From positions 85,499 to 149,498 of IMG/VR virus record IMGVR_UViG_3300042908_000680: 64,000 nucleotides of DNA. One strand, written 5' to 3'. The DNA comes from a virus. The notes beneath the pieces were generated by a model, which made no database searches, was not told the DNA's origin, and was given only the letters and a program-made list of their open reading frames with translations. This document shows, one piece after another, positions 56,077 through 63,541 of the stretch (positions are counted from its first letter, which is position 1; each line of letters starts with the position of its first letter). The position numbers and the translations under genes are program-made.

Positions 56077-56382
56077 TTACCTCTTTAAATTAGTGGTCTT
56101 TGCATGAAATGGGCATACTGTTTTATGACCATCTCCTTGAACTATTATTCCTGTGCCTTTGCAAATGCATTTTGCTGGATCTGGATCAACATCCACAACC
56201 GGCTGTGGTTTTGGATCTACCTTAAAAACCTCTTTTTCTGCATTGTCAAAAGCCGCCTTACACTTCTCTTGCCACTCCGTTACGTAAGAAGAGTACATAT
56301 TTGTTATATCTTCTGGATTGACAGAAAACATATTATTTGAGCATCCAGTTACTAATAATACTGATAGTATATATTTATTCAT
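56077..56382 (-). CDS. Lipoprotein with CxCxGxG cluster (101 aa)
   Basis: The signal has a lipobox ending VTGC at residue 14 (KYILSVLLVTGCSNN), so the mature protein should be lipid-modified. The C-terminal region has CICKGTG and later HKTVCPFH, a half DnaJ-type zinc-binding pattern. Length and lipid anchoring fit an o-spanin-like or other outer-membrane protein. It lies upstream of the three membrane proteins. Confidence 0.65.
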   Translation of the reverse strand: MNKYILSVLLVTGCSNNMFSVNPEDITNMYSSYVTEWQEKCKAAFDNAEKEVFKVDPKPQPVVDVDPDPAKCICKGTGIIVQGDGHKTVCPFHAKTTNLKR

Positions 56383-56390
56383 TGTAAGTC

Positions 56391-57689
56391 CTAGTATAAA
56401 GTAAATGAGGATAGGTCGATAGTTGTTATCGTATATGAATTACCAGATCTATTATTTCTTGTCCAAAGTAGATTCATATTAGTATTTAATGTACTTATAA
56501 AATTACTATAGAATGGTCCACTGTCTGGTCCGGTCCATGTTATTATCAAAACCAATTGATTATTGATGATTAAAAATGATGGGTTGCCACTATCTCCACC
56601 TATTATTGATTCATGAAATAATATTCTATTTGGGTATGTATTATAATAACTATTATTGGGATCAAGATAATTTTGTGTTGGTTGCTGTGTATATGCGGAA
56701 CTGCCCGTTGGGTCCACGTATAGAAATTCTTTTACTAAAGCTTTTTCTTCTTGATCTAAAGATAGCATTGGAAGTCTGTAGATGGTATAAGTACCACTTT
56801 TATTTCTATAAATTGTAGGTAAATATATAGACCAATTAGAAGGAAGTAATTTGGCAAAACTAATGGAATTTGGTACGTCAGAATCTAAAAGTCCCAAATA
56901 AATATCAGTAGTTAATGTTGGTATTTTATCTATTAATGTTCTTTCTATAACAACATTATTGCTGGTGATAAATCTAACTTTAGCCCCTATATCCATTTCA
57001 TAGTGAGTTGCAAAAACTAAATGGCTTGGACTAATAAGAGTTCCGGCCCTAGTATTTGATCCAGTTGTATTCCAAGGACTTATGCAAGTTAAATCTAAAT
57101 CATAAGCCCAACAATTAGTATTTCTAACGTATGTAGAAGTTGAATGGTCTTGAGTACTATAAATGTTCTTTGCTATAGTTGGGTTTTTATTTAATAGTCT
57201 ATTATCGACATTATCAGAACAATTTTTTGCCAAGCTTCCAGATGTAAACTCACAAAAAGCATCTATTTGTCCACCTATATTACAATTGACATTTACTTCT
57301 GCAATGTTAAAATCAGATGTATTTATTCCACTTGCTATAATTTTTACTGCTCTTTTAGAAGTGCTTCCCGTTGGCACTCCAGAACATATATAGTTGTTAG
57401 GATTTAAATTTGATAAAATACTGTTATCTGTACTATATACAGTAACTGATATATCATCTTGTTTATATAATATTATATTAAAATCAGTTATAGTAGATGA
57501 ATTAGTAGATCTGAATACTGTAGCGTCATAATTCGTAGTATAGCCAGAGCCAGTAGAAACTAATATCCTATCTTGGGGCTGTGCTGTGATTTTTACTCTA
57601 TCTCCACCAATATCTGGTTTTTTAAACAGATAAGATGAATTCTCAGATATAGAACCACAATTGAGAGGTATATTTTGAGCTTCTATCAT
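56391..57689 (-). CDS. Chymotrypsin-like serine protease, cassette B
   Basis: A trypsin-fold protease of 432 residues. The triad is readable: H229 in LVFATHYEM, D262 in TTDIYLGLL and S367 in GGDSGNPSF, all in normal order and spacing. The first 190 residues are a separate beta-rich domain. It has no signal peptide, so it is probably part of the virion or an intracellular processing enzyme. It starts within the stop codon of the fibre gene (TAATG). Its paralogue at 59003-60211 has the same arrangement, and both C-termini end TTIDLSSF. A role in host surface or fibre processing is inferred. Confidence 0.75.
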   Translation of the reverse strand: MIEAQNIPLNCGSISENSSYLFKKPDIGGDRVKITAQPQDRILVSTGSGYTTNYDATVFRSTNSSTITDFNIILYKQDDISVTVYSTDNSILSNLNPNNYICSGVPTGSTSKRAVKIIASGINTSDFNIAEVNVNCNIGGQIDAFCEFTSGSLAKNCSDNVDNRLLNKNPTIAKNIYSTQDHSTSTYVRNTNCWAYDLDLTCISPWNTTGSNTRAGTLISPSHLVFATHYEMDIGAKVRFITSNNVVIERTLIDKIPTLTTDIYLGLLDSDVPNSISFAKLLPSNWSIYLPTIYRNKSGTYTIYRLPMLSLDQEEKALVKEFLYVDPTGSSAYTQQPTQNYLDPNNSYYNTYPNRILFHESIIGGDSGNPSFLIINNQLVLIITWTGPDSGPFYSNFISTLNTNMNLLWTRNNRSGNSYTITTIDLSSFTLY

Positions 57690-59002: not shown

Positions 59003-60211
59003 CTAATAAGATAAAAAAGATGAAAGATCTATTGTAGTCAATTGATACCCACCGCCAAGCTGAGACATCATTTGATTTATTGCATCTTTTTCTAATGATG
59101 TAAAGCTTCCAGATCCACCTATCCCCCAAGTAGTAACAAATATGAGTACTAATTCATTATTTATCAAAAGAAATGCCGGACTACCAGAATCTCCAGTATA
59201 TAGCTCTCTAAAAAATGGTCTACGTATAGAAGTTAGTTCTTGACCTATACATTTTGCTATAGAAGATAACTGATATAGGTTTGTGACGCTTACATATTCT
59301 GACTGATCCACTATTATAACCGGTATTTCTATTCCACGCTTAATATTTGGCAGATATTTTCCAAAGTCAATTGGAAGAATTTTTGTAAATAAAATTGTAT
59401 TTGGAAGATCTGAATCCAATAAACCCACTTGTATATCATTGAACTTACTTGTAGAATTATAATTTGGATGAGTAATAATACCCGTGATAGTTCTAGTTAT
59501 TGATACATTATTATTTGTTACAAATCTTATAGTTGATCCACTTGCAATAGGATAGTGGGCAGCAAACATTACATGCCTAGGGCTTATCAAAACGCCCGCC
59601 CTGTTTGCTATTCCGTAGGAATTCCATGGGCTGATGCATGTAAAATCAACATTTTTAAATACAAAAGAAGAATTTCTAGTGTAAATATTATTTGCGTGAT
59701 TTTGAATAGAGTATACTTGCTGTGAAGAGGTTGGTGATATTCCAGATATTTTTAAATCTACTTGATCTGTTATATGACTTGATAAACTATTATTCACAAA
59801 AGACAAAAAGGTATCTTGATTTGATGTACTACCAATTGGAGAATATTGTATATTGATATTAACATATTGATTAGATCCATCATCAAAAGATAGTTCTAAT
59901 ATATCATTTCCTACTGATATTCCAGAACATTGCAGATTATTAACAAGAACATTATTTGAATAGTTTTTTATAGATATTATTTTTTTACTAGATGATTCAA
60001 AGATAAAATCTCTGATTCCAGATGAACTAGATACTCTATATATATTTGTATCTTTGTCAATTATGGAACCCGAAGATGATGGCGAAATGGGCCTAAAATA
60101 ACTACTATATTCCAACCTTGAAGATAAATTGGGTTTACTAAATGTCCAAGATGGAGGATTATTAGTAGATCCACAGTTTATCGGAACGCCTTTTGCTTGT
60201 AAAATAGACAT
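59003..60211 (-). CDS. Chymotrypsin-like serine protease, cassette A
   Basis: A paralogue of the protease at 56391. With the start at 60211 (one base after the fibre stop; matching the paralogue's start), it has 402 residues with H219 in VMFAAHYPI, D259 in FNDIQVGLL and S342 in TGDSGSPAF. The N-terminal 190 residues are a beta-rich domain related to its paralogue's (KGVPINCGS against QNIPLNCGS). No signal peptide is present. It is paired with the LRR fibre upstream. It may trim or activate the fibre or digest host surface proteins; neither is proven. Confidence 0.75.
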   Translation of the reverse strand: MSILQAKGVPINCGSTNNPPSWTFSKPNLSSRLEYSSYFRPISPSSSGSIIDKDTNIYRVSSSSGIRDFIFESSSKKIISIKNYSNNVLVNNLQCSGISVGNDILELSFDDGSNQYVNINIQYSPIGSTSNQDTFLSFVNNSLSSHITDQVDLKISGISPTSSQQVYSIQNHANNIYTRNSSFVFKNVDFTCISPWNSYGIANRAGVLISPRHVMFAAHYPIASGSTIRFVTNNNVSITRTITGIITHPNYNSTSKFNDIQVGLLDSDLPNTILFTKILPIDFGKYLPNIKRGIEIPVIIVDQSEYVSVTNLYQLSSIAKCIGQELTSIRRPFFRELYTGDSGSPAFLLINNELVLIFVTTWGIGGSGSFTSLEKDAINQMMSQLGGGYQLTTIDLSSFLSY

Positions 60212-60212
60212 A

Positions 60213-61541
60213 TTATGTAGTTGTTGTATCAACGATGTAGTTTTTGGCAGTTGCTATACTAGTATTATGTGTGCTAATACCCGGATTCCCATATACATAA
60301 ATAGTTTTTGATGTTGCCGCCGTTGGTAAAAGATTGTAAATATTATTTAACTGTGCCGCTGAAAATTGACAATTTTTGAATGAAAAATTGCCATATGAAT
60401 TGTTAAAATTTATTTGAGAAAGATTTGTACATCCATCTAAAACAAATGTACCGGGTGATATAATTGATGGAGAAAAAGTAATTGATTGTAGCGTTGTTGA
60501 ATTTGTTAAGTTTAAATTATTGATTTTATTATTGCTAAAATTTAAAGATGTTATTTTTGCACCCTCAAATGCTAACCAACTTAAGTTAATGTTACTAGAT
60601 AAATCTATAGATGACAGATTGGTATTACCAATAAATAAACTTGATAAATTAGTACAATTTTTAAGATTTAATTTTGATAATGATGCGTTGTAAGTAAGAT
60701 ATACTGTTGTAAGACCAGAGGCGTTAGAAAAGTCTACCCATTGTAAATTATCATTTCCATTCATGTTACAATATGTGACGGTTGGAATTTTTATCCACTC
60801 TAAATTTGATACCACATTTCCATTTATTTGTATTCCACTGACATTATTTTTTAGATGAATATATTTTACTGTATCATTACTATCAATTGATATACCTGTC
60901 AAAGATGTCATTTCTTCAAAGTTAATCTCAAAATTTTTAGAACTAGCACTACTGGAAAAGTTTATTATGTTACCAGATTGAGCAGCATTACCAGATGAGC
61001 AACTCCAATAGTATAATTCTTTTATTGAATTTTTAGCATATATTCCAGTATTTGAAGAATTAAGTGCAATTGAAGCTGTTATAGAACTGCTTGGATTTCC
61101 ATTTCCAAAAACTCTAACATCACCACTTGGTGTTTGTACAGCTAAATACCCAGTTGATGTATTAAATGTTGCTGAGTGTGATGATGAACTACTATTGCTT
61201 TTTATTCTCATCATCCCACTAGGTATACATAATGGACTTGGATATATTGGGCCAGTGTATACTGGATATCCACCTTGAGTATATCCATCTCCTATATATA
61301 GATTAGATTTATTTGTAGAAAATACTGGTTCACCAAGAGAAGGAATAACTGATAATAATTCAGATTCAAGTCCCTGTCTAAGTTGTAATGCCGCTGGCTG
61401 GCTTAATAAAGAATTTCTTAGTAAACTTGCAGATATTCTTTTTGTTACAGCATTGCCGCTTGGATCATCTAATATCAGCAATAAATCATCATCAGTAACA
61501 GATGATCCAGATGGTAATTGATTGATTCTTATTATACCCAT
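60213..61541 (-). CDS. Tail fibre with Mtd_N-like stem and leucine-rich repeats, cassette A
   Basis: The N-terminal 95 residues are clearly related to those of the fibre at 57689 (IIRINQLPSGSSVTDDDLL, then LQLRQGLESELLSVIPS and NLYIGDGYTQGG). From about residue 195 to 400 the protein has leucine-rich repeats of about 20 residues (LSKLNLKNCTNLSSLFI, SSIDLSSNINLSWLAFEGA). LRR proteins form curved binding surfaces, so this is a candidate receptor-binding domain different from its sister fibre. AGGAG stands before the ATG in the same sequence as for its paralogue. Confidence 0.85.
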   Translation of the reverse strand: MGIIRINQLPSGSSVTDDDLLLILDDPSGNAVTKRISASLLRNSLLSQPAALQLRQGLESELLSVIPSLGEPVFSTNKSNLYIGDGYTQGGYPVYTGPIYPSPLCIPSGMMRIKSNSSSSSHSATFNTSTGYLAVQTPSGDVRVFGNGNPSSSITASIALNSSNTGIYAKNSIKELYYWSCSSGNAAQSGNIINFSSSASSKNFEINFEEMTSLTGISIDSNDTVKYIHLKNNVSGIQINGNVVSNLEWIKIPTVTYCNMNGNDNLQWVDFSNASGLTTVYLTYNASLSKLNLKNCTNLSSLFIGNTNLSSIDLSSNINLSWLAFEGAKITSLNFSNNKINNLNLTNSTTLQSITFSPSIISPGTFVLDGCTNLSQINFNNSYGNFSFKNCQFSAAQLNNIYNLLPTAATSKTIYVYGNPGISTHNTSIATAKNYIVDTTTT

Positions 61542-61807: not shown

Positions 61808-62725
61808 TTAAAATTGATCTTTTAATGTCCAAACTACTTTTCTTGGAGGAAAACCGTCTACATCACTAAATACCCAAGAGCCATTTTGTGCCAACATTTC
61901 TGCTGCATCTCGCTCTCTTATCCAGAAACTTCCATCTGGTTGATCTAAACGCTTCTCGCCATTATTCCAAACTCCCCAAGAGTTTTGGACTAAGAATAGT
62001 GTTTCATTATAAATTTCATGAGTATCATCCATCCCAATCCAAGCCATCGCGTGACCCCATGATCCAGATCGGGCGGCAATACCATTCTTATCTCTTCTAG
62101 AACTAAATCCAGAATTACTGCATACACTAATAGAATAACCATTGGCTATTGCATCTCTGGCTTGATCTATTGTGTTAATTAAGCTGATGGTCTTAACTTG
62201 ATGTTTCTTCGCCGCCTTTACTAATTCTTCTGGAACACCAGTTCTGCCCCACTTACCACCAATAGCACTATATGTTGAAAGATCATAATCTCCGTACTTT
62301 TGACGAAGTAATATTCCTCCATTTTGGTGGACGAATTTAGCAGCACCACCACAAGTCATACCTTCACCGCCGTGTCCGCGTGAACCATAAATACCTTCAG
62401 TAGCACCACGGGCCACAAACTCTTCTCGTTGCCCATTTATAATTTCACAACTGCGTGTAATATCTACGCTATTTCGCGTTGCATGTGAAACACAATCTCC
62501 TTGGACTTGCCTTTCTGATGGACCAAAAGAGGGATCAAACTTCAAGAGAGACTTAAACGGTAGGGATAGTTTTCCTTTTCCAGTACCATATAAATCATGT
62601 GCTGCCACACCGAATAGTGGATGTGGCAGTTCTCCTAAGAGCTTGTCCAACTCTTTTGGGTCACAGTATGATCCTACAAAGCCATCTTTATAGGCTTTTA
62701 ATAAATCTTTCGGTGTCTTGAACAT
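61808..62725 (-). CDS. Papain-like (C1) cysteine protease
   Basis: The C1 signature is visible: QVQGDCVSHA has the catalytic cysteine C78 in the bacterial GxCxxHA form; GSWGHAMAW has H225; LVQNSWGVWN has N248. The ATG at 62725 overlaps the holin TGA by one base; a GTG three bases earlier would add one residue. No signal peptide is seen. It lies between the holin-like gene and the fibre cassettes, so it may act as a virion maturation protease, a lysis enzyme or a weapon against host proteins. Papain-like enzymes are uncommon in phages. Confidence 0.8.
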   Translation of the reverse strand: MFKTPKDLLKAYKDGFVGSYCDPKELDKLLGELPHPLFGVAAHDLYGTGKGKLSLPFKSLLKFDPSFGPSERQVQGDCVSHATRNSVDITRSCEIINGQREEFVARGATEGIYGSRGHGGEGMTCGGAAKFVHQNGGILLRQKYGDYDLSTYSAIGGKWGRTGVPEELVKAAKKHQVKTISLINTIDQARDAIANGYSISVCSNSGFSSRRDKNGIAARSGSWGHAMAWIGMDDTHEIYNETLFLVQNSWGVWNNGEKRLDQPDGSFWIRERDAAEMLAQNGSWVFSDVDGFPPRKVVWTLKDQF

Positions 62726-62946
62726 CACTTTGAGTTATCCTTTGCCCACTTAACTATTGTGTTAATTAATACCACTGTAACAGGCACAATTAGTGCTGTC
62801 ATGCTACCAAGATCAAGCTTAGTTAGATTTTCGCCAATATATGTTAATAGTGCGGCTAAACCAACTAATGCTGCGTTCTTACCAACTGAAATAAGATCAG
62901 TTGTATTTAATGAGAATGCTTTGGAACCTACTTTTAGATCTAACAT
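62725..62946 (-). CDS. Holin-like membrane protein (73 aa)
   Basis: Two hydrophobic helices (about 24-38 and 47-65) are separated by a short charged turn (GENLTKLDLG), and the C-terminus is basic (KWAKDNSK). Size and topology fit a class II holin, which would form membrane lesions at lysis. GGAGA precedes the start. It overlaps the papain-like gene by one base and follows the PAS membrane gene by one. Confidence 0.6.
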   Translation of the reverse strand: MLDLKVGSKAFSLNTTDLISVGKNAALVGLAALLTYIGENLTKLDLGSMTALIVPVTVVLINTIVKWAKDNSK

Positions 62947-62947
62947 C

Positions 62948-63541
62948 TTATATCTCCTTGAGTTGAGAAATGCTTATTAAAAATCCACCATGCTCCTTGT
63001 CATTTATCCTATATGGAAATCCCATCATTTTGACTATCTTATCATCTACTGTTTGTACTGTTTTGACTAATTTTCTATTCATTTTTAAGCAAGATTTCAA
63101 TTCATCAAAAAGATCTTCTCTATCTTCTTCTTTTACATAATTGAGCCAATCATAACCCTCTACACTATTAACAACATCTTGTGTTAATTCATAAAAATTA
63201 TTGTTGGTCCAAGTTAGTCTACCATGATCGTCTGTTTCAAATAATGCTGCATCATTATAATGAAGTGCAGCTTTTGTTCTTTGTTCTATAACTTTTTGTC
63301 TTTTTTCCATTCTATTAACGGTGGATCTTAAATCTACAATAGCATCTTTTAAACTATTTCCACCATTAGTTGTTAGTTCTTTTTTGATTGTTTCTAATGA
63401 TCTGCCAACTTCTTCTTGACCTTTAACAAATTTAATTGCTGGTCTTATTACCTTAACCCACATTAAGCTAAAAAATGTGCCTAGACCACCTATAATACTA
63501 AATATAAAGGTGATATGTTCTGGACTTTTTATGTCTAGCAT
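62948..63541 (-). CDS. Membrane-anchored PAS-domain protein
   Basis: The start at 63541 has GGGGG just upstream; an ATG at 63553 has no ribosome binding site. A single membrane helix spans about 9-31, a coiled coil about 41-90, and a PAS fold about 92-197 (AALFETDDHGRLTWTNNNFY, then YDWLNYVKEEDREDLFDEL). This is the topology of a signalling sensor, but there is no histidine kinase, GGDEF or other output domain. It lies immediately upstream of the holin gene. It may sense the state of the cell and act on the membrane, for example on the holin; that is inferred. Confidence 0.7.
   Translation of the reverse strand: MLDIKSPEHITFIFSIIGGLGTFFSLMWVKVIRPAIKFVKGQEEVGRSLETIKKELTTNGGNSLKDAIVDLRSTVNRMEKRQKVIEQRTKAALHYNDAALFETDDHGRLTWTNNNFYELTQDVVNSVEGYDWLNYVKEEDREDLFDELKSCLKMNRKLVKTVQTVDDKIVKMMGFPYRINDKEHGGFLISISQLKEI

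What the first reader, a model, noticed from the sequence alone, without database searches (positions are those of the whole stretch)
62725..63541. Membrane PAS sensor directly upstream of a holin-like gene
The 197-residue protein has a membrane helix, a coiled coil and a PAS domain but no output domain, and it is one base from the holin-like gene. PAS domains sense redox state, oxygen, light or small ligands. A sensor embedded in the membrane next to a pore former could set lysis timing by the energy or redox state of the cell. This would be a new kind of lysis control.
Basis: inference. Interest (0 to 1): 0.75.

Follow-up and report, generated by a model that had tools for sequence, protein, structure and literature searches.

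The report
PAS-tailed phage lysis membrane protein
A family of uncultured viruses of bacteria carries a small membrane protein with a PAS domain (a fold that often senses small molecules) beside a likely pore-forming protein; its membrane half matches a family found in the lysis genes of other phages, so these viruses may let a sensor domain influence when they burst the cell, which nobody has tested.

Summary
On the minus strand, 63541-62948 encodes a 197-aa protein with one N-terminal membrane helix, long helices and a PAS domain. One base later comes a 73-aa protein with two membrane helices (62946-62725). PAS is supported by AlphaFold2 (pLDDT 84.5), Foldseek (272 PDB hits at E<=1e-3; the 50 listed are overwhelmingly PAS/LOV) and Pfam matches in relatives. 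Of 89 distinct PAS relatives, 78 are followed by the same two-helix family. That adjacency is weak evidence, because the surrounding block is equally syntenic.

The stronger evidence is that the N-terminal half (membrane helix plus an 'ELxPNGGxSxKDxVxRIE' motif) belongs to a phage family, phrog_9869/phrog_15431 (the latter labelled lysis/holin). In Streptomyces, Thermobifida, Arthrobacter and Glutamicibacter phages it sits beside endolysin and holin genes without a PAS. Unrelated PAS-bearing versions also lie beside lysozyme or spanin genes. Topology is N-out/C-in in 65/65, so the PAS is cytoplasmic.

Best reading: this is not a sensor beside a holin but a one-helix lysis protein, LysF1b-like in anatomy, with a PAS tail, paired with a two-helix LysF1a-like partner. 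The PAS may sense a signal or only drive dimerisation. No ligand is identified and there is no experimental evidence.

The parts
62948..63541 (-). 197-aa N-out/C-in bitopic membrane protein with C-terminal PAS domain
   Evidence: ORF; AlphaFold2 pLDDT 84.5; Foldseek PAS; 90 distinct homologues
63452..63514 (-). membrane helix, about residues 10-30
   Evidence: hydropathy; mean 3.6 K/R after and 0.3 before, C-side richer in 65/65 sequences
63344..63379 (-). ELTTNGGNSLKD motif (residues 55-66), hallmark of the phrog_9869-type lysis-cassette module
   Evidence: N59, G61, S63, K65, D66 invariant in 65 sequences; phrog_9869 matched by 39/65 members
62963..63253 (-). PAS domain, about residues 97-193, predicted cytoplasmic
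63089..63091 (-). Cys151 on the long PAS helix, invariant 65/65; role unknown
62725..62946 (-). 73-aa two-helix N-in/C-in holin-like protein
   Evidence: follows the PAS gene in 78/89 distinct loci
61808..62728 (-). 306-aa papain-like (C1) protein, candidate lytic enzyme, start overlaps the 73-aa gene by 4 bases
   Evidence: PF00112 E 0.0016, below cut-off; follows in 56/67 loci; no match to five endolysin families in this record and three relatives

Best explanation
The 197-aa protein is a one-membrane-helix lysis-cassette protein (N outside, C inside) of the phrog_9869/phrog_15431 kind. Its cytoplasmic tail has been extended by helices and a PAS domain. It works with the adjacent two-helix N-in/C-in protein as a lysis pair, comparable in anatomy to LysF1b/LysF1a of mycobacteriophages. 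The pair accumulates in the inner membrane and opens it late in infection, probably to release the downstream papain-like enzyme or an unrecognised endolysin. The PAS tail controls assembly or triggering, by dimerising and possibly by binding a cytoplasmic ligand. Shown here: fold, predicted topology, family membership of the N-terminal half, genomic context. Inferred: a role in lysis, physical pairing, control by the PAS, and any ligand.
For: PAS fold. N-out/C-in charge pattern in 65/65. The two-helix partner follows in 78/89 distinct loci, usually 1-2 bases apart. The N-terminal module matches phrog_9869 in 39/65 members and phrog_15431 (lysis, holin) in 8/65. Short PAS-free versions sit beside endolysin or holin genes in phages mu1/6, TurkishDelight, P1312, Sonali, BV-113 and ct2KA10, and in contigs L191/L196. 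PAS-bearing versions in unrelated genomes lie near Phage_lysozyme (L182), NlpC/P60 (L178) and Rz-like spanins (L216, L205). Profile comparison of the window clade with these remote PAS proteins: 100% probability, E 9e-50 over 189 columns (the two alignments share the window and L047 sequences, so this is not fully independent). Genetics of a LysF1a/LysF1b pair with the same predicted topologies: PMC13056207.
Against: No experiment. The 73-aa protein matches no holin family. The window protein alone matches phrog_9869 only at E 0.04. In-clade adjacency is confounded by synteny of the whole block. Some remote PAS versions (L176, L179, L181, L222) are not beside recognisable lysis genes. No canonical endolysin was found, so the downstream enzyme is a guess. 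Homology to LysF1b itself was not tested.
Confidence: 0.6

Rival explanations
1. The PAS is only a structural dimerisation module. It helps the one-helix lysis protein oligomerise or reach a critical concentration and senses nothing.
For: PAS domains are common dimerisers (established knowledge). No recognisable cofactor signature: Trp132 sits at the LOV-cysteine position and no conserved His was seen within the PAS. PAS-free versions of the module exist, as do other one-helix proteins in the same slot in L133, L150, L154, L156.
Against: Several PAS-core positions are strictly invariant, including an unexplained Cys151. A simple helix would suffice for dimerisation.
Confidence: 0.35
2. The protein has no role in lysis. 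It is a membrane-tethered host-takeover, exclusion or assembly factor that lies next to a small membrane protein only because the whole late-gene block is conserved.
For: Upstream genes are as syntenic as the two-helix gene (66/67, 63/67, 62/67 loci). Relatives L176, L179, L181 and L222 lie next to other genes.
Against: The N-terminal module and the PAS versions recur beside lysis genes in unrelated genomes. In L077 the two-helix gene is replaced by an unrelated 60-aa membrane protein in the same place.
Confidence: 0.2
3. One reading: an independent redox or energy sensor acting on a separate holin.
For: PAS fold; adjacency; holins generally respond to membrane energisation (established knowledge).
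Against: The membrane half is itself of a family labelled holin/lysis. No haem, flavin-adduct or other redox signature was recognised.
Confidence: 0.12
4. It is a spanin or a T4 T-like class III holin.
For: One helix plus soluble domain; weak BFVD structural matches to Proteus phage holins (E 0.007 and 0.017).
Against: Opposite predicted topology (against PMC11413866). No profile similarity to T4 T (hhalign probability 0.2%).
Confidence: 0.04

Closest known systems
LysF1b/LysF1a pair of mycobacteriophages Girr and NormanBulbieJr (PMC13056207)
   Same: One-helix N-out/C-in protein adjacent to a small two-helix N-in/C-in protein; basic residues after the membrane helix; lysis cassette
   Different: Reverse gene order; LysF1b is 124 aa with a charged helical tail and no reported PAS; sequence homology not tested here
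phrog_9869 / phrog_15431 lysis-cassette membrane proteins (e.g. Streptomyces phage mu1/6 gp52, Thermobifida P1312_040)
   Same: N-terminal helix and PNxGxS[LIM][KR]DxVxRIE motif
   Different: End at or shortly after the motif and lack the PAS
XhlA/XhlB of Bacillus prophage PBSX (PMC5589764)
   Same: A membrane protein required together with a holin (paper)
   Different: XhlA has its membrane helix at the C terminus (own knowledge) and no PAS; no homology tested
T4 holin T (PMC11413866)
   Same: One helix plus a soluble regulatory domain
   Different: T is N-in/C-out with a periplasmic domain; no detectable similarity
VqmA-phi of phage VP882 (PMC12802170)
   Same: Phage PAS ligand-binding domain feeding into a lysis decision
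   Different: A soluble transcription factor acting on lysis-lysogeny, not a membrane lysis protein

Membership tests
PAS domain superfamily | b-b-a-a-a-b-b-b fold with five-stranded sheet | tested here: met
   AlphaFold2 and Foldseek
PAS domain superfamily | Pfam PAS score above curated cut-off | tested here: inconclusive
   Window protein below (17.4 against 22.1 bits); remote relatives clearly above
PAS sensor | bound ligand or cofactor | not testable with these tools
   Only residue conservation was examined
phrog_9869/phrog_15431 lysis membrane proteins | N-terminal helix plus PNxGxSxKD motif, profile match | tested here: met
   39/65 members phrog_9869 (best 5.5e-5), 8/65 phrog_15431 (best 0.0021) at E<=0.1; weak for the window protein alone
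phrog_9869/phrog_15431 lysis membrane proteins | location in a lysis cassette | tested here: inconclusive
   Two-helix holin-like partner adjacent, but no confirmed endolysin
LysF1b-like | single helix, N-out/C-in, paired with a two-helix N-in/C-in protein | tested here: met
   charge pattern and hydropathy
LysF1b-like | sequence homology to LysF1b | not tested
   Girr and NormanBulbieJr sequences not retrieved
LysF1b-like | lysis defect on deletion | not testable with these tools
   needs a phage experiment
T4 T-type class III holin | N-in/C-out topology | tested here: not met
   K/R excess after the helix in 65/65
Inner-membrane spanin (Rz) | periplasmic coiled coil (N-in/C-out) | tested here: not met
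   predicted N-out/C-in
Class II holin (73-aa partner) | two membrane helices, N-in/C-in, small size | tested here: met
Class II holin (73-aa partner) | match to a known holin family | tested here: not met
   (best phrog_4237 holin, E 0.29, one member)

The most novel reading that the evidence does not exclude
The PAS tail binds a cytoplasmic metabolite or responds to redox state, and that binding gates assembly or triggering of the lysis proteins: a ligand-gated lysis clock, arising in several unrelated phage lineages.
Probability: 0.28. Interest if true: 0.85.

Novelty: new variant of a known kind. Interest (0 to 1): 0.58.

Why it matters
Holin timing is usually described as set by membrane accumulation, with antiholins as the known regulators; a PAS domain attached to a lysis membrane protein would be a direct route for a cytoplasmic signal. 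The architecture recurs in many uncultured phages and in several unrelated genomic contexts. In the searches made here no paper linked PAS domains to phage lysis membrane proteins (open-access text only). It is directly testable in laboratory strains by swapping or deleting the PAS tail.

Tried and rejected
In-clade adjacency as proof: rejected, because the upstream genes are equally syntenic. T4 T-type holin, suggested by weak BFVD hits: profile comparison found nothing and topology is opposite. Spanin: opposite topology. Direct matches in cultured phages by tblastn with four PAS proteins (window, L047, L176, L187): nothing meaningful; only the short PAS-free module finds isolates. PDB sequence searches gave no PAS match by sequence worth using. 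First AlphaFold2 run on 11 closely related sequences was poor (pLDDT 54). Counting endolysin domains near short modules by Pfam gave only 2 CHAP among 49 ORFs because many contigs are short.

Full report
Place. The window is the last 64 kb of a 149,498-bp IMG/VR virus record. All genes discussed are on the minus strand.

Observation. The 197-aa ORF 63541-62948 is followed after one base by a 73-aa ORF 62946-62725, whose end overlaps the start of a 306-aa papain-like protein (62728-61808).

PAS identity. The window protein alone scores below Pfam cut-offs (PAS_10 17.3-17.4 against 22.1 bits). Across an 11-member alignment PAS is hit in all 11 members at E<=1 (best PAS_9 9.4e-6). AlphaFold2 with 65 homologues gives mean pLDDT 84.5 and the PAS order of strands and helices at residues 99-193; Foldseek finds 272 PDB matches at E<=1e-3, and the 50 listed are overwhelmingly PAS/LOV chains such as NifL, FixL, CPS_1291 and ARNT. 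Very remote relatives score far above cut-off (L176 PAS_3 1.4e-13, L178 2.9e-12), and the two alignments match by profile comparison at E 9e-50 (they share the window and L047 sequences).

Topology. In all 65 aligned sequences the flank after the membrane helix has more K/R than the flank before it (mean 3.6 against 0.3). The positive-inside rule gives N-out/C-in, so the helices and PAS are predicted cytoplasmic. In the model the NGG motif is a short turn between helices 7-56 and 64-94. The two-helix protein has basic ends and an acidic loop, fitting N-in/C-in.

Conserved adjacency and its limit. Profile-guided scans gave 90 distinct PAS proteins. Of 89 with sequence downstream, 77 are followed by the two-helix family by script, and L169 makes 78 by eye. 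The commonest spacings are 1 and 2 bases. Within the window's own clade the only exception is L077, where an unrelated 60-aa membrane protein stands in its place. However, five or six upstream genes are about equally syntenic, so this adjacency alone does not show a functional link.

Independent contexts. A profile of the two-helix protein reached more distant viruses. In L133, L150, L154 and L156 the slot between the upstream structural-type gene and the two-helix gene holds a different one-helix protein (103-184 aa, helical by eye) without a PAS (L133 has one extra gene in between). Scans with divergent PAS proteins recovered many short (53-113 aa) proteins with only the membrane helix and the motif ELKPNGGSSIKDQVNRLE. 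In L191 and L196 the neighbour is a PHROG endolysin (6e-63 and 1e-24; CHAP in L191), with a 60-74-aa small membrane-type ORF between endolysin and module in L191, L194 and L198. The same module lies beside lysis genes in phage records: mu1/6 (endolysin gp50, holin gp51, module gp52), TurkishDelight (endolysin 35, small membrane-type 36, module 37), Thermobifida P1312 (module 040 annotated 'CreC', amidase 041), Arthrobacter Sonali (module 22, lysin A 23, membrane protein 24), Glutamicibacter BV-113 and ct2KA10 (endolysin assigned by eye in these two). These proteins match phrog_9869 (2e-32 for mu1/6) and phrog_15431, 'holin' (1.3e-10 for P1312); 39/65 and 8/65 members of the window's PAS family match the same two PHROGs at E<=0.1. 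The holin label is the PHROG annotation, not a test.

PAS versions elsewhere. TM-motif-PAS proteins in unrelated genomes lie near Phage_lysozyme (L182), NlpC/P60 (L178, which could also be a tail enzyme), and immediately after an Rz-like spanin lipoprotein (L216) or just downstream of an Rz-like protein (L205, an Acidobacteria assembly). Others (L176, L179, L181, L222) are not beside recognisable lysis genes.

Mechanism. The best fit is a one-helix lysis protein with a PAS tail, paired with a two-helix protein. Pollenz et al. 2026 (PMC13056207) show for mycobacteriophages that a one-helix N-out/C-in protein (LysF1b) and a two-helix N-in/C-in protein (LysF1a) are both needed for efficient lysis, that LysF1b behaves as a putative holin, and that about 80% of M. 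smegmatis phages encode a LysF1b-like protein. The anatomy here is the same with a PAS added; whether they are homologous was not tested. What the PAS does is open. Trp132 occupies the position of the LOV adduct cysteine and no His is conserved within the PAS; Ser150-Cys151 are invariant in 65/65. The reading of these positions rests on general PAS knowledge.

Lytic enzyme. Amidase_2, Phage_lysozyme, CHAP, Peptidase_M15_4 and SLT are absent from this record and three relatives of 159-167 kb (records may be incomplete). The papain-like protein that follows in 56/67 loci is a candidate; Cys, His and Asn of a papain-type triad look conserved by eye.

Novelty. No paper found in the open-access library links PAS to holins or lysis membrane proteins. 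VqmA-phi of VP882 is a phage PAS receptor in a lysis decision, but a transcription factor. I file this as a new variant of a known kind.

Noticed in passing
L033/L035 and L040 (relatives of window 61808-62728): The papain-like protein is interrupted by what looks like an intein starting at its catalytic Cys (QGDC), in two divergent lineages; identified by eye only.
   Followed up: no
window 56077-56382; L047, L202, L169: A small lipoprotein with a conserved CxCxGTGxIxxGDGHxTxCPxH motif; in some relatives the motif protein carries a thioredoxin-like domain.
   Followed up: no
window 56391-57689 and 59003-60232: Two proteins with trypsin-like GDSGxP motifs among tail-fibre-like genes next to the papain-like gene; this stretch is variable between relatives.
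   Followed up: no
L201 and L202: Two different members of this virus clade sit on contigs binned in one SAR202 (Chloroflexota) assembly; a host hint or a binning error.
   Followed up: no
KT021004 P1312_040 (L210): Lysis-cassette membrane protein annotated as 'sensory protein kinase CreC', apparently a misannotation.
   Followed up: partly
L002 4751-5230 and relatives (upstream of the PAS gene; beyond the window's end): A roughly 159-aa protein resembling a small sigma-like factor lies two genes upstream of the PAS gene in 63/67 loci; assignment by eye.
   Followed up: no
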